A stretch of 64,000 nucleotides of DNA, taken from NCBI GenBank assembly GCA_938029215.1, contig CALHFG010000051.1, positions 36,541 through 100,540 of the forward strand, read 5' to 3'. The DNA comes from an uncultured Acidimicrobiales bacterium. Lineage in GTDB: Bacteria > Actinomycetota > Acidimicrobiia > Acidimicrobiales > SZUA-35. A program made the position numbers and the translations under genes. This document shows positions 9,259 to 56,291 of this stretch, one piece after another. Positions within the stretch are counted from its first letter, which is position 1, and every line of letters starts with the position of its first letter. Below the pieces are notes generated by a model, which was not told where the DNA came from, ran no database searches, and saw only the letters and a program-made list of their open reading frames with translations.

Positions 9259-10542
9259 TCAGACCGTCCGCCAGACAGAAGCGAGGCAATTACGCAGGTA
9301 CGCAGCGTCGATCGCGCCAGTCGTCTCGCGTGCGGAGTGCATCGCCAACTGCGGTGCTCCAATATCGATGGTGCGGACACCCAACTGTGCCGATGTTGCG
9401 GGGCCAATGGTTGAGCCACAGGGAAGATCGTTGCGATGTATGTAGGTCTGCACGGGCACCCCGACCGCGGCACAAGCGGCACGAAAGGGCTGTTCACTCG
9501 CTGCATCCGAGGCATATCGCTGGTTTGCGTTCCGCTTCACAACGACCCCGGCGTTGATCGCGATGTGATGGTTGGGTTCGTGCTTGTCGACATAATTCGG
9601 GTGGGTCGCATGCGCACAATCGGCCGACACCACGTAACTACGGGTCAACGCTTCGAGGTAGTCGGTTCGACCAAGGCCGGCGGCGGTAGCGATACGTTCC
9701 ATCAGCGAACTCAGGTTGGACCCGGCTGCACCCGTCGCCGATTCTGACCCCACTTCCTCGTGATCGAAGAGAGCGAGAACCTGGATCGCTCCGGGAGCTG
9801 CTGTCTCCAAAGTCAAGCTCGTCAGGGCGTCGAGCGCTGCGAAACAGCTCAGCTGATTGTCGACCCGAGCGGACGCGATGAGATCAGAATCCAGTCCAAC
9901 GATCGCCGGGGGCTGGGTGTCAAAGACCATCACATCCCAAGCAAGAATGTCGTCCTCGGAGGCGCCGGTCTGAGTTGCGAGGTAGGACCGGAACGTCGCT
10001 TCCGTGTTCGAGGTAGCCCAGAGAGGGTTGATGTGCGTCTGCGGATCGAGCTTGAGCCCCTTATCTCTGATCTCACGATCGAGGTGGATGGCAAGTTGTG
10101 GAATGCGAAGGATTGGCCGATCGTCGAGGAAGAGGACGGTCGAGCCGTCGGCAAGGGAAACTCTCCCGGCTAGCCCGAGATCGCGATCGAGCCAACTATT
10201 CAGCAACACGCCGCCGTACACCTCGACCCCTAACTGGGCCCACGAAGCATTCTCAAGGTCGGCGTTGGCCCGCACACGCAGGTTGGGCGAATCGGTATGC
10301 GCTCCGACGACGGTGAAACGGTCAGGTTTTGCCGGAACCATCCATGCGATGATCGATCCTCCATCGACGCGGAAGTAGCGCCCGGGTCCCTTCGGCAACG
10401 ACTGTGTCCGATCGACGGACACAAACCCGGCCTCATCCAGTCGACGAGCCGACTCTGAAACGCAGTGGTACGGGGTCGGGCTGGACTCGATCGAAGCCAA
10501 CAGTTGCTGTACGTATGCGGAATCCACCTGCTCGCGAGTCAT
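9259..10542 (-). CDS. apeB: M18 family aminopeptidase
   Basis: A 427-residue metallo-aminopeptidase of the M18 (aspartyl aminopeptidase-like) family, which uses two metal ions to remove N-terminal residues, usually as a large cytosolic oligomer. Metal-binding and catalytic motifs are visible: 'VGAHTDSPNLRVR', 'LFDHEEVGSESATGA' and 'SADCAHATHP'. The closing 'GAPQLAMHSARE' supplies the last metal-ligand histidine. Length and ends match the family. The start is fixed by a leaderless-type -10 six bases upstream. No operon partner is seen; the next gene upstream on the same strand is a hypothetical that ends 17 bases before this start. Confidence 0.93.
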   Translation of the reverse strand: MTREQVDSAYVQQLLASIESSPTPYHCVSESARRLDEAGFVSVDRTQSLPKGPGRYFRVDGGSIIAWMVPAKPDRFTVVGAHTDSPNLRVRANADLENASWAQLGVEVYGGVLLNSWLDRDLGLAGRVSLADGSTVLFLDDRPILRIPQLAIHLDREIRDKGLKLDPQTHINPLWATSNTEATFRSYLATQTGASEDDILAWDVMVFDTQPPAIVGLDSDLIASARVDNQLSCFAALDALTSLTLETAAPGAIQVLALFDHEEVGSESATGAAGSNLSSLMERIATAAGLGRTDYLEALTRSYVVSADCAHATHPNYVDKHEPNHHIAINAGVVVKRNANQRYASDAASEQPFRAACAAVGVPVQTYIHRNDLPCGSTIGPATSAQLGVRTIDIGAPQLAMHSARETTGAIDAAYLRNCLASVWRTV

Positions 10543-10554
10543 GACCGAAGACTA
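10543..10554 (-). promoter_or_regulatory. Leaderless-type -10 box of M18 aminopeptidase
   Basis: On the minus strand TAGTCT (10554-10549) is followed by six bases and ATG at 10542. No Shine-Dalgarno sequence is present, consistent with a leaderless mRNA. Confidence 0.55.
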
Positions 10555-10559
10555 CTCAG

Positions 10560-11207
10560 TTAGCGACCGGGAAGGTTCAGTGCCTCGATCGCATCATGAG
10601 CGGCCCGGAAGAATCGGCGAGGATGACGCTTGGACTCAAGAGTCACTTCAAACGCCGAGAACGAACTGTTGAACCGAAGCACGCGGGCCGACACCCTCAC
10701 GGGCACGGTCGGTCGGAGCCGAAACGCTCCGATCAGCTGACCCGTCGCAAACAACTCGAGCTCAGATCCGACCCGCCGTTGTTCGAAGTGTTCGAGCGCC
10801 AGCGCAGCGGACGCACGACTCGACCGAAGTCCCTGGACCAGTTCCGACGGCGACACGCTGAACAACCGGATGGTCCGGGAGCCCTTTCCTGGCCGGCCCG
10901 ACGTGCCCGATCCCCACAATTGCACGTTGGACTGAACACCGGGCTGAACACCGGGCGCCATGGGGCGGGCCCGGCTTGTCCGTGGGCGTGTTTGGCCTTG
11001 CATCTCGGGATCGGTGTCCTCGTGCGCCACCCGATACAAGTCGTCAGCGCTCAGCATGCGTTCGGACTCGTCGAGAATGATGGGTACATCGGGCTCAATG
11101 AGTTCAAGCACGGTTGGTTCCGCTGGTCCGACCGCCTCCGACTTCACCGGAAGCGGCCGAAAGAAATCCGCTCGCATGGTCACGTTATGGCGCGTGCGCA
11201 CACTCAT
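10560..11207 (-). CDS. Hypothetical protein
   Basis: 215 residues from ATG 11207; ATG 11177 is an alternative, and the ORF-track start at 11282 (TTG) gives an implausible Cys-rich leader. Not recognised as a family. The first ~100 residues are acidic then Pro/Arg-rich and probably disordered. The C-terminal ~80 residues look folded ('ELELFATGQLIGAFRLRP' and 'FEVTLESKRHPRRFFRAAH'), a beta-rich module ending in a helix. It diverges from hppA across a 186-bp gap and precedes the M18 aminopeptidase. No membrane segment. Confidence 0.6.
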   Translation of the reverse strand: MSVRTRHNVTMRADFFRPLPVKSEAVGPAEPTVLELIEPDVPIILDESERMLSADDLYRVAHEDTDPEMQGQTRPRTSRARPMAPGVQPGVQSNVQLWGSGTSGRPGKGSRTIRLFSVSPSELVQGLRSSRASAALALEHFEQRRVGSELELFATGQLIGAFRLRPTVPVRVSARVLRFNSSFSAFEVTLESKRHPRRFFRAAHDAIEALNLPGR

Positions 11208-49859: not shown

Positions 49860-52800
49860 CTAGGTCGTCGCAGCCTGAATCGCCATCATGTTCCCGTTGA
49901 TCACCATGATCCCCTGCCCCTTCTTTAGGTCCGCCACCAATTTGGCTGGAAACATCACCTTCAGTGCGTCGCCGTCGGTCGCGAGCGGCTGCAGAACGAG
50001 CCCAACCGGACTGGAACGAAACACACTTGTCCATTCCATTAGCGCCTTGGTGTCGCTCGGCTTCATCGCTGCCAACATCCATTGACCTTTGCCGGTCGTG
50101 GCAGCGAAAGCTTTCAATTGCTCGGCCAAGCCGATGTCGACGCGGGCGGCGTCGTCGACGACAACCAGCGACGCGCCGGCCAGCAGGTCCTCATCGATGA
50201 GTTCGCTCGGTTGAATCAGCGTTGTGCCTCCCACGACGGCGAGAGATGATTCCGGGTCCGCCACAACAACGATCGGGCCGGAAAGGTCGGCGGCCACGGC
50301 CTGCGTCGTTAGCTGGACCAGAACTGAGGTGCGCCCCGTGCCAGGACTTCCCAAGACGACGGCTCGATCATCGATCGACAACACCGCGGTTTCTACGTCG
50401 CGAATACGCACGCCGATCGGAAGCTCTAGTCGGCTCCCTTGCCTGCTGGCATGCACGTCGAGATCTGCAGAGCGGGTCTGGCTCTCAAGCCGCCTGACCC
50501 GTCGTGGTGGTCGGACCACAGGCGCCTCGAGGCGATCGACAATCGACGCGACCTCAGCCATGCCGATCGAGGCTGCAATGCCATCGAGCCCGGTTTCTAC
50601 TTCGAGAATCATTCGTCCGGACAGGACCGGAACGTCACGCTGTCTTAGGCCAAAGCTTACGACTGCAGCCGGATCGGTCAGCCGGTGGAGAAATTTCAGT
50701 TTCGCCTGGCTGGTAACCCGGCTCGGCAGCTGGCGCTCCGTGCTCGCGCTGGCGACGATGGAGAGGCCGAGCGTCGCAGCTTCTCGCAGGAGGGCTCCCA
50801 GGCGCGACAGCGTCGCGTGATCCCCTGCCTCGTTGAGACGTTCATAAAGCGACCCCATACCTTCAACCACGACCAGAAGTGTGGGGAGGTCGGTCACGGA
50901 TCCGCCGCTTGCGCGGAGTGCCTTTCGCTCAGCCACCGAGTCGGCGAGTAGATCGAGAACCCTGGCGAGCAGATCGTCGTCGTCGTGGGTGATGTAGGCA
51001 CCGACCGCGGGTGCGTTGCGCAGGATCCGCAGCCCCGCGGCGCCCGAGTCGAGAAGGTAGATATGCAGGTCGTCGGCGGAGCATGCCCGCATCGCCTGGA
51101 CCGCAATCGTTCTCAGCGTGTCGGCGGTGTGGGCCGCGTCGGCACCAAACACAAAGGTGTTGGCGTTTCCAAGTGGAATGGTTAGCGCTTCGCGGCGTTG
51201 CTCGCCTGGCACGTCAAGAAGACCAGCGACAACACAATTTTCGTCGGCACCTATCGACAGAAGACCGTCGAGGCCGATGCTGGGCGGAAGTTCAGGCAGC
51301 CAGGGCTTTCGTGGCTCGGCCAACCCTGCCTTGTCATTGGCAAGAACGATCTCCTGAACCATGCGCTCCATATCTGTGGGTTGGTCCGACAGATCCTGCC
51401 GTTCGGCGGTAGGCGTTGGGCGCAGCAGATACTGCCAAGACGAGATACCGGTTGAAGCGACCGTGTCCGGAGTGACGCCTCCCGCATAGGCGGCCTGAAC
51501 GGGCACGATGTCGCCAGCGCCCATACGTACAAACCCTCTACCCATGTCCGATCGACGCAACCGTGCTGCGTCGTTGGTGCCGAGAACGTCTTGGGAATCT
51601 GCATCATCTTGCACCCGCAAACTGATGCGTAGGTTGGTGTTGCTCTTGATCTTTGCATCCACAACACCAGCGGGACGCTGGGTTGCCAACACCATGTGAA
51701 TCCCAAGTGATCGGCCACGCTGGGCGATGTCGACCAGGGCATCCAGAAACTCTGGCAACTCTGCCGCCAGGGTGGCGAACTCGTCCACCACGACCACGAG
51801 ACGAGGCATGACGCCGCCGCCGGATCGATAACCACCGAGATCGTGTGCTCCTGCATCTCGGAACGTGATCTCCCGAAATCGGAGCTCAGCCTGGAGCGAA
51901 CGAAGCGCCCTAGCTCCCAGGTGACCGTCGAGATCGGTGACCATGGCGACCGCATGCGGCAACTCGGCGCACGCATCGAACGCTCCGCCACCCTTGTAGT
52001 CAACCAAAACGAAGTTGACGGTCCGAGGGCTGAACCGAGTTGCGAGAGACAACACGAACGATCGCAGGAACTCGCTCTTGCCTGCGCCAGTGGTGCCCGC
52101 CAACAAGGCGTGCGGACCGTCCTTGACCAGATCGGTTTCGAAGGGGCCGTGCGGCCCGACCCCCAAGGTCGCAATCGGGTTCGGGTCTGCGCCCGCCGTC
52201 TCCCAACGCTCCAGAACAGCGTCGGCCGAGATGGAGCCGGTAACCGAAGGCAGTGCCACGTGGGAAGGCAACTCGATGGACGTAGCCGACGCATCCGGGT
52301 CGGTGAGGCGGGCCAGCGATCGAGCGGTGGCAGTCGCGGTCGGAACATCCATCCCGACTGGCGTCACGTACTCGCTCGTCACTCCTGTGACCATGTCGGT
52401 GAAGGTCGCCGTACCATCGTCGTCGATACGGATGACCCAGTGACAGCTCGCGGGCAACTCGTCTTCGTGAACGGCAACCACGACACCACTGATTCCGTTG
52501 TTGGCGGCTAATGCTTGTCGCAGCGGTGACTCGCCGGAGCGAAGGAGGTCGACACCATCGATAAACAGCACGGAGACCGGGTGAGCCAAAGGTTCTAGAC
52601 CCGGGCGTGAAGGTACGTCGACGGTTTGCTTGGCGATGAGTTCGGCGACTTGGTCGTTGGTGCATGCCAGCCGATGCGGCGAACCGAGATGCGGAAGCCA
52701 CTTGGCCCAGTCCCAGTCATCCAGGATCTGGTCGGGGCCGACCAGTGCCATCGGAACGTCGGCGGGCCCGGACAGAACAGCGAGCCCGGCCATCACGGCT

Positions 52801-54011
52801 CTTGCCACGCCCAAGGCATCGGCACGGTCCCCAACGATTCCTAGCGATCCCAGGGCCAGGTTGACCGCGAGCGGAACAGAATCAAGATGGGCGATCGAGG
52901 CGACGAGATCGTCCACTTGCTCTGGGACCGGCGTGTCAAACCTCCACGCCCGCTCCCCGATAGCGATCGTGGCAACTGCGAAGTCATCGTGACCAGGGCG
53001 CCGCTCCCACAGTCTCGGATCGTGATGAAGCGCTCGAGGCACAAGCTCAGCCGGGCCAGGGTTCACGAGATTCTCGTGATCTACGACCGCTCGCCGAGCC
53101 TGGAGAATCTGGTGGAACGTGTCGGCACGGGCAACTTGCACCGCACGCTCGTACTCTCTGCCATGTTTGCCGGCTCGACGCTTGCCGTCATACCAGCGGG
53201 CAATCATGGCCAGCGGGCTCAAGGCGGCGAAGTACAACATGGTCGAACTGCCGATCGCCAGCGCCAAGATGGCAGCCCCGGGAATGGGAGCGAGCATCGC
53301 AATCCAACTCAGGGGCTGTACCTCCGGGGGAGGTTTGGGCATGGCAGGCGGCGTGTACGCATGGTCTGGGGACGGGCTGACAGATCGAGGGATGCGGTGC
53401 ACTGCGCCGTCGGCCGGGGGGCGCCGACGGAGCGGCGGAGCGAATGGCTCGAGCTTGAACCGTTCATCGCCGAGGTGCAAGACCGTCGTTGTGTGGCGAG
53501 GTCTCGCGACCGATGACGACAAGAGCTGACCATCGAGTACGACCGGCGTCGAACCGGGGGTCACAAGGATCTGGTCGGCCCGAATATCGAGAAGAACCCG
53601 CACAGCGCAGCCCGACAGGGCCCCCTGGGGGTGCCAGTCCGGTCCCCCATCGTCAAATTGAAACTGCCCGGCCGGCAAGTCTTGGCGGCGGCCGGCATGG
53701 GGGCCAGCGATACACGCCACGGTCAGAAGAGATTGATCGTCTGCGGCGAGGTCGGGCCGAACCCCATCCGCGGGGTTGGCTAGTACGGAGCCGTCGGCGA
53801 TCGAGGTCTCGGCCAGCATCGCAGAACCGGAAAATACCCGACCGTCGATGAGGAGGGGTCCGTAGGTGAACCCAGCGATCTCGGCGAGGTCCCCGACGAG
53901 CGCGGTCGTGCGGTCGCAGGCGACGGTGATGTCTCTGGTCGACGGCTCGCTCGACCTCGAGCCGAGCGCGACGGGACCCGTGAAGATTGCGACGCGCAAC
54001 AGATCGGTCAT
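49860..54011 (-). CDS. EssC/EccC-like FtsK/SpoIIIE ATPase of type VII secretion type
   Basis: 1383 residues. N-terminal ~210 residues are beta-rich and resemble the FHA-like head of EssC ('VRVLLDIRADQILVTPGST', 'TVLHLGDERFKLEPF'). Two membrane helices follow at ~235-280, then a cytosolic linker domain and three FtsK-like ATPase modules. The first is intact: Walker A 'LLAGTTGAGKSEFLRSFVLS' (~637), 'FVLVDYKGGGAFDACAELPH' and 'LVVVVDEFATLAAELPEF'. The second (~955, 'VFGADAAHTADTLRT') and third (~1220, 'LGSPGTGRTSVLVQ') lack the P-loop Lys, as in many EccC/EssC proteins. It should power export of WXG100-like substrates, but none is encoded here. Confidence 0.9.
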   Translation of the reverse strand: MTDLLRVAIFTGPVALGSRSSEPSTRDITVACDRTTALVGDLAEIAGFTYGPLLIDGRVFSGSAMLAETSIADGSVLANPADGVRPDLAADDQSLLTVACIAGPHAGRRQDLPAGQFQFDDGGPDWHPQGALSGCAVRVLLDIRADQILVTPGSTPVVLDGQLLSSSVARPRHTTTVLHLGDERFKLEPFAPPLRRRPPADGAVHRIPRSVSPSPDHAYTPPAMPKPPPEVQPLSWIAMLAPIPGAAILALAIGSSTMLYFAALSPLAMIARWYDGKRRAGKHGREYERAVQVARADTFHQILQARRAVVDHENLVNPGPAELVPRALHHDPRLWERRPGHDDFAVATIAIGERAWRFDTPVPEQVDDLVASIAHLDSVPLAVNLALGSLGIVGDRADALGVARAVMAGLAVLSGPADVPMALVGPDQILDDWDWAKWLPHLGSPHRLACTNDQVAELIAKQTVDVPSRPGLEPLAHPVSVLFIDGVDLLRSGESPLRQALAANNGISGVVVAVHEDELPASCHWVIRIDDDGTATFTDMVTGVTSEYVTPVGMDVPTATATARSLARLTDPDASATSIELPSHVALPSVTGSISADAVLERWETAGADPNPIATLGVGPHGPFETDLVKDGPHALLAGTTGAGKSEFLRSFVLSLATRFSPRTVNFVLVDYKGGGAFDACAELPHAVAMVTDLDGHLGARALRSLQAELRFREITFRDAGAHDLGGYRSGGGVMPRLVVVVDEFATLAAELPEFLDALVDIAQRGRSLGIHMVLATQRPAGVVDAKIKSNTNLRISLRVQDDADSQDVLGTNDAARLRRSDMGRGFVRMGAGDIVPVQAAYAGGVTPDTVASTGISSWQYLLRPTPTAERQDLSDQPTDMERMVQEIVLANDKAGLAEPRKPWLPELPPSIGLDGLLSIGADENCVVAGLLDVPGEQRREALTIPLGNANTFVFGADAAHTADTLRTIAVQAMRACSADDLHIYLLDSGAAGLRILRNAPAVGAYITHDDDDLLARVLDLLADSVAERKALRASGGSVTDLPTLLVVVEGMGSLYERLNEAGDHATLSRLGALLREAATLGLSIVASASTERQLPSRVTSQAKLKFLHRLTDPAAVVSFGLRQRDVPVLSGRMILEVETGLDGIAASIGMAEVASIVDRLEAPVVRPPRRVRRLESQTRSADLDVHASRQGSRLELPIGVRIRDVETAVLSIDDRAVVLGSPGTGRTSVLVQLTTQAVAADLSGPIVVVADPESSLAVVGGTTLIQPSELIDEDLLAGASLVVVDDAARVDIGLAEQLKAFAATTGKGQWMLAAMKPSDTKALMEWTSVFRSSPVGLVLQPLATDGDALKVMFPAKLVADLKKGQGIMVINGNMMAIQAATT

Positions 54012-54125
54012 AGCACTACCCGAAAGTACTGAGGCTTCTCGCCTGGTACCTGAGGCCCCCGCCTGCTCCTTTCCTAGGCCGACCTACCCACCTGGCGGCG
54101 CGGAAGGATGGGAGGCGCACCCGAG

Positions 54126-54138
54126 TACCTTGGTTCTC
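54126..54138 (+). promoter_or_regulatory. Leaderless-type -10 box of TPR protein
   Basis: TACCTT (54126-54131), seven bases, ATG 54139. The same hexamer occurs before korA. Confidence 0.5.
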
Positions 54139-55047
54139 ATGGCAGACCAGCGGATCGAGCGGGCAGAGCAGCTCGCCGCACTGGGTCGTCACAACGAGGT
54201 TCTCGAGATACTGGCTGACCCAGGCCTGGCCGAGGACCCCGATGCCAGCCGTATGCGAGTCTTCGCCCTGCTCAACACCGATCGACCGGCAGAGGCGCAC
54301 CGAGAAGCCGATCACCTGGTTGCCATCGACCCCGACTCCCCTCTCAGCTTCCTTGCTCGTTCATATAGCTGGGAGCGTTTGGAGAGGCCGTGGGAGTCGT
54401 TGCGAGACGCTCGTTCGGCGGTTAGCCGGGCTCCGCACGTTCCTCTTTTTCGCTCTCGTCTGGCCACGTGCTTGGCTCGTTCGGGTCAGCTTGACGAGGC
54501 CCACTCTGAAGTCGGCTGGGTGCTTAGTCAGGAACCCGACGATCCAGACCATTGGGTGCTGCTCGGCCGAGTCTATTACCACCTAAACCGCCTCGACGAG
54601 GCCGAGGGTGCAGTGCTGGAGGCGCTCCGCCTGGACGCGCAAAATACCGAAGCAAAACTGCTTCTCGCGGGCGTTCAGGCCGAGGGCAAGGGGCGAACCA
54701 ACGAGAGCATCGAAACCCTTATCGATGTTCTGCGGGCTAACCCTGCCGAGGCCAGTATTCGGCAGATGCTGCTGGATGTGGCGTTCCCTCGGCAGCTCCC
54801 TTGGGAGTTCTTGATCATTCTCATGGGTCTGGCCGTCATGCTTGGCGGCGTAGTCGCTGTTCCTCTAGCCCTCACCTATGGCGGCGTGGTCGCGTACCGG
54901 TACCGCAAACTGACACCACAGCTACGAGCGATGGTTTGGGCCGAGCCTACGACCCGGCGGCGAATGCAAGTTGCCATCGTCGTTTGGACCCTGGGTGTGG
55001 TGGGTACCTTTGCGGCTGGGCTCTACTTGGGCTTGCTGGCAAGGTAG
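54139..55047 (+). CDS. TPR-repeat membrane protein
   Basis: 302 residues from ATG 54139; the ORF-track start 53866 reads antisense to the EssC-like gene. Residues 1-~210 form about five TPR-type helix pairs ('SRLATCLARSGQLDEAHSEV', 'LLGRVYYHLNRLDEAEGAVL'). Two membrane helices follow (~220-245 'FLIILMGLAVMLGGVVAVPL' and ~280-300). The TPR part is predicted cytosolic. Divergent from the EssC-like gene and overlapping the AAA+ gene by 25 bp at the 3' end; a scaffold role in the same export machine is possible. Confidence 0.82.
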   Translation: MADQRIERAEQLAALGRHNEVLEILADPGLAEDPDASRMRVFALLNTDRPAEAHREADHLVAIDPDSPLSFLARSYSWERLERPWESLRDARSAVSRAPHVPLFRSRLATCLARSGQLDEAHSEVGWVLSQEPDDPDHWVLLGRVYYHLNRLDEAEGAVLEALRLDAQNTEAKLLLAGVQAEGKGRTNESIETLIDVLRANPAEASIRQMLLDVAFPRQLPWEFLIILMGLAVMLGGVVAVPLALTYGGVVAYRYRKLTPQLRAMVWAEPTTRRRMQVAIVVWTLGVVGTFAAGLYLGLLAR

Positions 55048-56291
55048 GCAGCCAATTCGTCATACTGACCATCGGCATTTGCGAAGGTCACGTAGTTCCT
55101 CGCGGTATCGAGCCAGGGGCCAACCGATGGGCGTAATGACTTGGCTGATTTCAGAAGCAGACGCTGGGTGACTGGCTCAAGCGTTCCGGTTTTCATGGCC
55201 TTCTGCATAGCGACCTCAACCGCGGTCTCACACACCAACCGCAGGTCTGCGCCACTGAAGCCTGCAGTTTTGGACGCCACCTCGGCGAGGTTGAGTTCCT
55301 CGGCGGGCCGATCTCTGAGGTGGTACTCCAGGATCGATGCGCGAGCTTGGGGGTCCGGTGGCAAAACAGCCACCGCTCGATCGAAACGTCCGGGACGCCT
55401 GAGGGCGGAGTCAACGTCCCACGGCGCATTAGTAGCGCCGATGAAATAGACGCCTTCGTTGCTGGTATCGACTCCATCCATCTCGCTCAGCAGCTGCGCC
55501 ACAACGTTCCGCATTCCCGACGAATTGTGAGAGCTTCGCTTCTGTCCGATCGCGTCTACCTCGTCGAAGAACAGCACGGTCGGCGACTTTTCTCTCGCGG
55601 CTTCAAACAGCTGATGCAATTGCTTTTCGCTGTTTCCGATCCACATGTCGAGCACATCGTGGAGGCCCAGGCTCATGAAGTTGGCATCCAGCTCACCGGC
55701 GATCGCCCGCGCCAGGAATGTTTTGCCGCACCCTGGGGGGCCATAGAGCAGCAATCCACCGCTTGCGGACAGTCCATAGGCAGCCTGGAATTCCGGGTTG
55801 CGGATAGGCCCAAAGAAGCTTCGTTCCAGCTGAGCCTTGACCGCCGACATTCCGCCTACGTCATCCAGACGAATGCGATTCTTCCGATCGTCTCTGATGG
55901 TGTCCATGAGAAACTCGTCGAACTCATCGAACTCGTCATACTTGGCATCATCTGGAGAGCCTTCCGCTGGCACCCGATCGAGCGCCGCGTCTTGGGGGTC
56001 AACGGCACTCTCTTCGACCGAGTCTGGCGCGAGCGCTGCCAGCAACGACTCCCATGCCTGGGTCCGAGGATCATCGGTGGCCGCCCCGCCTGCGGCGGCG
56101 ATTTGCAGCGCCTCCACGTTGGCAGGCTCTGCAGCCAACACGATTTCTGCTTCAACGAGAGCCTCCTGCGGCTGACCTTTCCGCAGGAATTCCTTCCCTA
56201 GGTGAATCCGCAAGGCGCGTGCGTCCTCTCCCGACTGGTCGACGAGGGCTCGTAGTGCTGCTTGTAGGGCATCGATCACGGGATCGGTCAT
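55023..56291 (-). CDS. AAA+ ATPase with TPR-like N-terminus
   Basis: 422 residues. Residues 1-~75 look TPR-like ('LGKEFLRKGQPQEALVEAEI'), followed by an acidic linker and one classical AAA module: Walker A 'LLYGPPGCGKTFLARAIA' (~185), Walker B 'TVLFFDEVDAIGQKR' (~243), sensor 'FIGATNAPWDVDSALRRPGR' with an Arg finger, and the lid ('TAGFSGADLRLVCETAVEV'). It belongs with the Cdc48/Vps4/FtsH-type AAA proteins rather than the CbxX type found in EccA. It probably remodels protein complexes in the cytosol. TPR plus AAA plus EssC-like ATPase side by side suggests one system, but that is inference. Confidence 0.9.
   Translation of the reverse strand: MTDPVIDALQAALRALVDQSGEDARALRIHLGKEFLRKGQPQEALVEAEIVLAAEPANVEALQIAAAGGAATDDPRTQAWESLLAALAPDSVEESAVDPQDAALDRVPAEGSPDDAKYDEFDEFDEFLMDTIRDDRKNRIRLDDVGGMSAVKAQLERSFFGPIRNPEFQAAYGLSASGGLLLYGPPGCGKTFLARAIAGELDANFMSLGLHDVLDMWIGNSEKQLHQLFEAAREKSPTVLFFDEVDAIGQKRSSHNSSGMRNVVAQLLSEMDGVDTSNEGVYFIGATNAPWDVDSALRRPGRFDRAVAVLPPDPQARASILEYHLRDRPAEELNLAEVASKTAGFSGADLRLVCETAVEVAMQKAMKTGTLEPVTQRLLLKSAKSLRPSVGPWLDTARNYVTFANADGQYDELAAYLASKPK

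What the first reader, a model, noticed from the sequence alone, without database searches (positions are those of the whole stretch)
49860..56291. Compact type VII-like locus: EssC-like ATPase, TPR membrane protein and AAA+ ATPase
The 1383-residue FtsK/SpoIIIE protein has an FHA-like head, two helices and three ATPase modules, an EssC (Firmicutes-type) layout in an apparent actinobacterium. Modules two and three have lost the P-loop lysine. It is divergent from a TPR-membrane protein that overlaps a TPR-AAA+ ATPase of the Cdc48/Vps4 class, not the CbxX class of EccA. No WXG100, EccB/D/E or MycP gene is present, so this may be a reduced or different export system.
Basis: partly seen in the sequence, partly recalled or inferred. 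Interest (0 to 1): 0.58.

Follow-up and report, generated by a model that had tools for sequence, protein, structure and literature searches.

The report
Type VII secretion motor, partners elsewhere
The window holds the ATP-driven motor of a type VII protein-export system whose small WXG-type partner genes lie on another contig of the same genome; the two genes beside the motor form a separate, unrelated pair, so this is a scattered variant of a known machine rather than a new three-gene system.

Summary
The 1383-aa EssC-like ATPase, TPR membrane protein and AAA+ ATPase are real and as described. The reading of them as one compact export system without WXG100 is not supported.

(1) The ATPase is a type VII motor of a kind common in this order (110 of 298 genomes). 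Relatives usually sit beside a WXG-type gene.

(2) The window's own genome encodes a stretched WXG protein (161 aa, invariant WTG) plus a 138-aa partner on another contig. Pfam WXG100 misses it. In a tree of 45 ATPases, one supported clade, which includes the window protein, consists entirely of genomes that carry this WXG family (16 of 16).

(3) The ATPase head is not just FHA. A ubiquitin-like domain (EsaB/YukD/EccD type) precedes a degenerate FHA, which may explain why no separate YukD gene was found.

(4) AAA+ and TPR-membrane protein are adjacent in all 13 other genomes where both were located, but next to EssC only in the window's species and one congener.

No EccB, YukD/EccD or second EccC/EssC was found in the genome. 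Best reading: a genomically dispersed, order-level T7SS variant with the Ubl subunit fused to the motor. Not categorically new.

The parts
49860..54011 (-). EssC/EccC-type type VII secretion ATPase, 1383 aa
   Evidence: TIGR03928 EssC 442 bits over 268-1140, TIGR03924 EccCa 314 bits; PDB matches EccC-type 4nh0 (4e-62), YukB 9qks, EccC5; tree
53757..54011 (-). ubiquitin-like (EsaB/YukD/EccD-type) domain, residues 1-85 of the ATPase
   Evidence: head profile A4 positions 1-71 match ubiquitin (6l0l 1.1e-6), Ubl-only profile matches SAMP2 (8e-6); hhalign with EccD N-terminal domains of G033 P=5.8e-6, probability 85%; YukD Pfam weakly in 5 of 27 heads. The window protein alone matches no family.
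53442..53729 (-). degenerate FHA domain, residues about 95-190
   Evidence: FHA in 22 of 27 aligned heads (best 6e-19) but not in the window protein alone; profile positions 80-180 match GarA-type FHA structures at about 1e-17 or better
53385..53399 (-). juxtamembrane HRIPR motif (residues 205-209), counterpart of FNRPPR in relatives and in true ESX EccC
   Evidence: alignments; L150 EccC begins MSTVVFNRPPR
53217..53315 (-). hydrophobic pair, probable two transmembrane helices (about residues 233-265)
   Evidence: hydropathy
52212..53174 (-). stalk and pre-ATPase (D0) domain, about residues 280-600
   Evidence: shared with EccC (8rin, 6lar, 6sgw stretches) and with the ATPase-less paralogue L003:1204-2511
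51477..52214 (-). D1 ATPase module (residues 600-845), the only one with intact Walker A and B
   Evidence: PF01580 4e-35; GTTGAGKSE/DEFA near-invariant in 51 relatives
49860..51312 (-). D2 and D3 modules (about residues 900-1383), degenerate P-loops (D2 none, D3 GTGRTS)
   Evidence: D2 loss is general in the window's clade, D3 Lys-to-Arg common in the order
54139..55047 (+). TPR protein with two C-terminal TM segments, 302 aa; neighbour, probably not part of the export system
   Evidence: TPR_19 3e-16; TM segments 220-253 and 276-300; paired with the AAA+ gene in relatives
55023..56291 (-). AAA+ ATPase, PAN/Cdc48/FtsH-like, 422 aa; neighbour, probably not part of the export system
   Evidence: PF00004 1.9e-43, AAA_lid_3; EccA 28 bits only; pore-loop-like MWIG; order distribution

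Best explanation
[quoted passage not shown] Its cognate substrate/co-secretion cassette, a stretched WXG protein (161 aa) and a 138-aa partner, sits on another contig of the same genome (G000 C57:12793-13700). Proposed mechanism: the motor assembles as a hexameric ring. Its fused ubiquitin-like domain takes the place of the separate EsaB/YukD subunit (or the EccD cytosolic domain) and its degenerate FHA acts as a docking surface. D1 is the sole ATP-hydrolysing module; D2 and D3 act as substrate-sensing pseudo-ATPases. The WXG pair is recognised and driven across the membrane. Shown here: domain anatomy, motif loss, presence of the WXG cassette, and its tracking with this EssC clade. Inferred from characterised EccC/EssC: hexamer, substrate recognition, export. 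The AAA+ and TPR-TM neighbours are a separate conserved module (most likely a membrane-tethered unfoldase pair) that happens to lie beside EssC in this species and one congener.
For: EssC/EccC homology along the membrane-D0-D1-D2 part of the protein. EssC at E<1e-60 in 110 of 298 genomes of the order; most of the 20 extra order loci fetched have a recognisable WXG-type small gene next to the ATPase. WXG164 profile finds the own-genome copy at E=2e-59 (the copy is itself in that profile) and at 1e-20 with the independent first profile A1. All 13 WXG164-positive genomes of the order sample carry EssC (Fisher p=1.7e-6, not corrected for kinship); in 8 of 13 the two are on one contig a few kb apart. 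The supported 16-row EssC clade (SH-aLRT 100) that includes the window consists of genomes that all have WXG164. The congener G011 lacks both EssC and WXG164. WXG164 aligns to the short WXG proteins beside other EssCs of the order, P=2e-7. Ubl head. No YukD or EccB in own genome. AAA+ and TPR-TM adjacent in 13 other genomes, EssC-linked in two.
Against: WXG164 is below the Pfam WXG100 cut-off (best 0.0021 among members; own copy 0.03), so its family membership rests on the profile comparison and the WTG motif. Secretion is untested. EssC and WXG164 are unlinked in the window's genus. The third cassette gene (about 620 aa) was not found in the own genome. AAA+ presence is itself enriched with EssC (12 of 15 versus 110 of 298, p=6e-4 uncorrected), so an accessory role cannot be excluded. 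The genome is 94.6% complete. The AF2 model of the head failed (pLDDT 30), and the Ubl assignment depends on relatives, since the window sequence alone matches nothing.
Confidence: 0.8

Rival explanations
1. One reading: EssC, TPR-TM and AAA+ form one compact, reduced type VII-like export system without WXG substrate.
For: Physical adjacency in the window genome and in G012.
Against: AAA+ orthologues in 15 of 298 order genomes, EssC in 110; where both occur they are on different contigs or megabases apart, except in G000 and G012. Congener G010 has EssC without the pair. A WXG cassette exists in the genome.
Confidence: 0.06
2. The AAA+/TPR-TM pair is an accessory of the type VII system, an analogue (not homologue) of EccA that unfolds or recycles WXG complexes at the membrane.
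For: 12 of 15 order genomes with the AAA+ gene also have EssC (p=6e-4, uncorrected); pore-loop-like MWIG and membrane-anchored partner; adjacency in two species.
Against: Only a minority of EssC genomes have the pair; three genomes have the AAA+ gene without a detected EssC; no linkage elsewhere; the enrichment may reflect genome size or kinship.
Confidence: 0.14
3. The FtsK-type protein is a DNA translocase (conjugation or segregation) rather than a protein exporter.
For: FtsK/SpoIIIE, TraB and HerA models score weakly on the shared motor core.
Against: EssC/EccC models score far higher along the specific D0-D1-D2 layout; relatives sit beside WXG genes; the genome has its own FtsK-like gene (C79).
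Confidence: 0.03
4. The locus is a decaying remnant of a type VII system.
For: D2/D3 P-loops lost; third cassette gene not found; genes scattered.
Against: Full-length ORF, D1 motifs intact, 43-56% identity kept along nearly the whole length in congeners; D2/D3 degeneration is general in relatives that have linked cassettes.
Confidence: 0.05

Closest known systems
T7SSb EssC/YukB (Bacillota)
   Same: Head with FHA, two TM segments, D0 and three FtsK modules; best NCBIfam model is EssC
   Different: Below the equivalog cut-off; one Ubl plus one degenerate FHA instead of the two FHA domains reported for EssC; separate YukD not found; D2/D3 degenerate
T7SSa/ESX EccC (mycobacteria and relatives; also G033 in this family)
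   Same: D0-D1-D2-D3 core, juxtamembrane NRPPR-type motif
   Different: EccB and EccD not found in own genome; in ESX the Ubl domain belongs to EccD; separate branch of the tree from G033 EccC
T7SSd (Actinomycetota: Olsenella, Bifidobacterium; PMC11217815)
   Same: FHA-headed motor plus WXG protein in an actinobacterium, with no separate ubiquitin-like gene reported
   Different: Different lineage; kinase TsdD and TsdH/TsdI not tested here; Ubl domain in the motor head not described in the passages of that paper I read
WXG100 proteins (PF06013, EsxA/YukE)
   Same: WxG motif, gene cassette with an EssC motor, profile similarity P=2e-7 to short WXG proteins of the order
   Different: 161-165 aa, consistent with a lengthened first helix; below the Pfam cut-off
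EccA (CbxX-class AAA+ of ESX)
   Same: Cytosolic AAA+ with a possible TPR-like N-terminus next to a type VII motor
   Different: Different AAA+ class (28 bits against a cut-off of 467)
PAN/Cdc48-class AAA+ unfoldases
   Same: AAA + AAA_lid_3, pore-loop-like MWIG, conserved P-loop and DE
   Different: Single AAA ring with N-terminal repeats; membrane anchor possibly supplied in trans by an adjacent TPR-TM gene

Membership tests
Type VII secretion, minimal definition (EccC/EssC ATPase plus WXG100-family protein) | Membrane-bound FtsK-type EccC/EssC ATPase | tested here: met
Type VII secretion, minimal definition (EccC/EssC ATPase plus WXG100-family protein) | WXG100-family partner in the genome | tested here: met
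   Divergent 161-aa WTG protein on C57; homology to short WXG proteins P=2e-7; not by the Pfam cut-off
Type VII secretion, minimal definition (EccC/EssC ATPase plus WXG100-family protein) | ATPase-dependent export of the WXG protein | not testable with these tools
   needs experiment
T7SSb | EssC above the TIGR03928 equivalog cut-off | tested here: not met
   442 bits versus 778
T7SSb | Separate YukD/EsaB | tested here: not met
   PF08817 absent in own genome
T7SSb | EssA, EssB, EsaA | not tested
T7SSa/ESX | EccB | tested here: not met
   PF05108 absent in own genome, present twice in G033
T7SSa/ESX | EccD (YukD domain fused to a multi-TM domain) | tested here: not met
T7SSa/ESX | EccA-class AAA+ | tested here: not met
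   P0003 28 bits against a cut-off of 467
T7SSa/ESX | EccE and MycP | not tested
T7SSd | FHA-headed TsdC and no separate Ubl gene | tested here: inconclusive
   FHA degenerate in the window protein and preceded by a Ubl domain; no YukD
T7SSd | Kinase TsdD, TsdH, TsdI | not tested
   no profiles at hand

The most novel reading that the evidence does not exclude
An undescribed, order-level type VII subtype: the EsaB/YukD-type ubiquitin-like subunit is fused to the motor's N-terminus ahead of an FHA domain, and in one clade the motor is paired with a lengthened WXG protein and a second small partner, with motor and cassette genes dispersed in the window's genus.
Probability: 0.5. Interest if true: 0.5.

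Novelty: new variant of a known kind. Interest (0 to 1): 0.4.

Why it matters
Type VII systems are usually recognised by compact gene clusters and the Pfam WXG100 model; both miss this one. The fused Ubl head offers a direct test of where the EsaB/EccD ubiquitin-like module sits on the motor, and a possible reason why some FHA-headed systems, such as T7SSd, appear to lack a separate ubiquitin-like subunit. It also adds an order in which I found no paper describing a type VII system (within the open-access library searched).

Tried and rejected
The three-gene system was rejected on relatives. A DNA-translocase reading was rejected. A first mafft run timed out. Papers with 'type VII secretion' and 'Acidimicrobiia': none in the library.

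Full report
What is there. The window encodes, on the minus strand at 49860-54011, a 1383-residue FtsK/SpoIIIE-family protein; on the plus strand at 54139-55047 a 302-residue TPR protein with two C-terminal hydrophobic segments; and on the minus strand at 55023-56291 a 422-residue AAA+ ATPase. The TPR and AAA+ genes overlap tail-to-tail by 25 nt, so the overlap does not imply an operon. The AAA+ protein belongs to the PAN/Cdc48/FtsH-like class (195-203 bits against those models) and not to EccA (28 bits, cut-off 467).

The ATPase is a type VII motor. NCBIfam EssC matches residues 268-1140 with 442 bits and EccCa residues 224-845 with 314 bits, both below the curated equivalog cut-offs; PDB matches are the EccC-type protein 4nh0, YukB and EccC5. 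In an alignment of 51 relatives the D1 Walker A (GTTGAGKSE) and Walker B (DEFA) are essentially invariant.

The head. The first 85 residues look ubiquitin-like and residues about 95-190 are a degenerate FHA. The window sequence alone matches no family, but a profile of 27 aligned heads matches GarA-type FHA structures over positions 80-180 (about 1e-17 or better) and ubiquitin over positions 1-71 (1e-6). FHA is detected in 22 of 27 heads and YukD, weakly, in 5. A profile of the Ubl part alone matches the archaeal ubiquitin-like SAMP2 (8e-6) and aligns by hhalign to the YukD domains of the two genuine EccD proteins in G033 (P=5.8e-6, probability 85%). No separate YukD/EccD gene is found in the own genome and only two of 39 family genomes give any match; EccB is found only in G033. 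In this group the Ubl module thus appears built into the motor. In ESX it is fused to the multi-TM EccD, and Iyer et al. [quoted passage not shown] A juxtamembrane HRIPR motif corresponds to FNRPPR in relatives and at the start of a G033 EccC.

The missing WXG partner is not missing. Pfam WXG100 finds nothing in the genome. In family relatives the homologous motor often sits beside WXG-type proteins, some of them about 160 residues long. A profile of these found a homologue in the window's own genome on contig C57 (E=1e-20 with the first profile, which did not contain it; 2e-59 with the improved profile, which does), followed directly by a 138-residue partner (L075:9794-10279 and 10285-10701). 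The 13 aligned WXG164 proteins share an invariant WTG and align by profile to the short WXG proteins next to other EssCs of the order with P=2e-7, consistent with a WXG100 whose first helix is lengthened. In an order sample of 298 genomes, EssC (E<1e-60) occurs in 110 and WXG164 in 13. All 13 have EssC; one of them, G036, has its EssC split into two matches just below the cut-off, visible in L082. The two genes are on one contig a few kb apart in 8 of 13. A maximum-likelihood tree of 45 motors contains a 16-row clade (SH-aLRT 100) that includes the window protein and whose genomes all carry WXG164; outside it only G228, from another clade of the same larger group, has a weak match among genomes searched with the improved profile. 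The congener G011 lacks both genes. Contig ends of G005 and G035 carry the two halves of a third cassette gene (about 620 aa), one beside WXG164 and one beside EssC, suggesting that cassette and motor are contiguous there too; that third gene was not found in the own genome.

The neighbours are another module. AAA+ orthologues (E<1e-60) occur in 15 of 298 order genomes and, where EssC is also present, lie on other contigs than EssC or megabases away in every case but the window's genome; in the family, G012 has the same EssC-TPR-AAA+ arrangement. AAA+ and TPR-TM are adjacent in G001, G003, G004, G037, G141, G306, G128, G305, G064, G177, G070, G119 and G174. In congener G010 the motor lies directly beside the HrpA-type helicase gene without the pair. 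Twelve of the 15 AAA+ genomes also have EssC (p=6e-4, uncorrected for kinship or genome size), so an accessory role is possible but not shown.

Mechanism. By analogy with characterised EccC/EssC: hexameric motor, D1 hydrolyses ATP, the pseudo-ATPase modules sense the WXG pair, the Ubl/FHA head docks other subunits. These steps are inferred. The domain composition, motif losses, existence of the cassette and its association with this EssC clade are computed here.

Known or new. It meets the minimal type VII definition (EccC/EssC plus a WXG-family protein) with the caveat that WXG164 is below the Pfam cut-off. It fails tested features of T7SSa and T7SSb. T7SSd is the nearest described actinobacterial alternative (PMC11217815) but its kinase and TsdH/TsdI were not tested. 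I file it as a new variant of a known kind.

Noticed in passing
L003:1204-2511 (-) = G000 C14:31684-32991; counterparts in L089-L094: A 435-aa paralogue of the EssC N-terminal half (FHA-like plus pre-ATPase D0 domain) with no TM and no ATPase modules, in nearly all genomes of the family, including several that lack EssC (e.g. G011, G016, G038). In the order sample it is found only in this family at E<1e-30. Often in a conserved neighbourhood with a Tag-like DNA glycosylase, a small lipoprotein and an FrhB-like protein. Function unknown; a possible docking or regulatory derivative of a type VII motor.
   Followed up: partly
L085, L086, L087, L088, L152-L160; window 54139-56291: Conserved two-gene module of a Cdc48/PAN-class AAA+ (pore-loop-like MWIG, conserved C-terminal ARNxxxFxNxDGxYDEL-like motif) and a TPR protein with TM segments, across the order: possibly a membrane-tethered unfoldase.
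   Followed up: partly
L046:4871-6739, L049:5646-7514, L080:10681-12561; L148:6177-8783: About 620-aa third gene of the WXG164 cassette (EF-hand-like stretch in L046). Residues 8-140 of its profile match the N-terminus of an 868-aa protein in G012 (E about 1e-7), which could be a shared targeting domain of exported proteins.
   Followed up: partly
L149 and L150 (G033 C90, C99): Two genuine ESX (T7SSa) loci with EccB, EccD and EccC in a genome of the same family that otherwise lacks them.
   Followed up: no
L051:7606-17398: In G002 an EssC locus carries a Ser/Thr kinase, a PP2C-type phosphatase and an FHA protein (read from sequence), like the kinase-regulated T7SS variants described in PMC11217815.
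   Followed up: no
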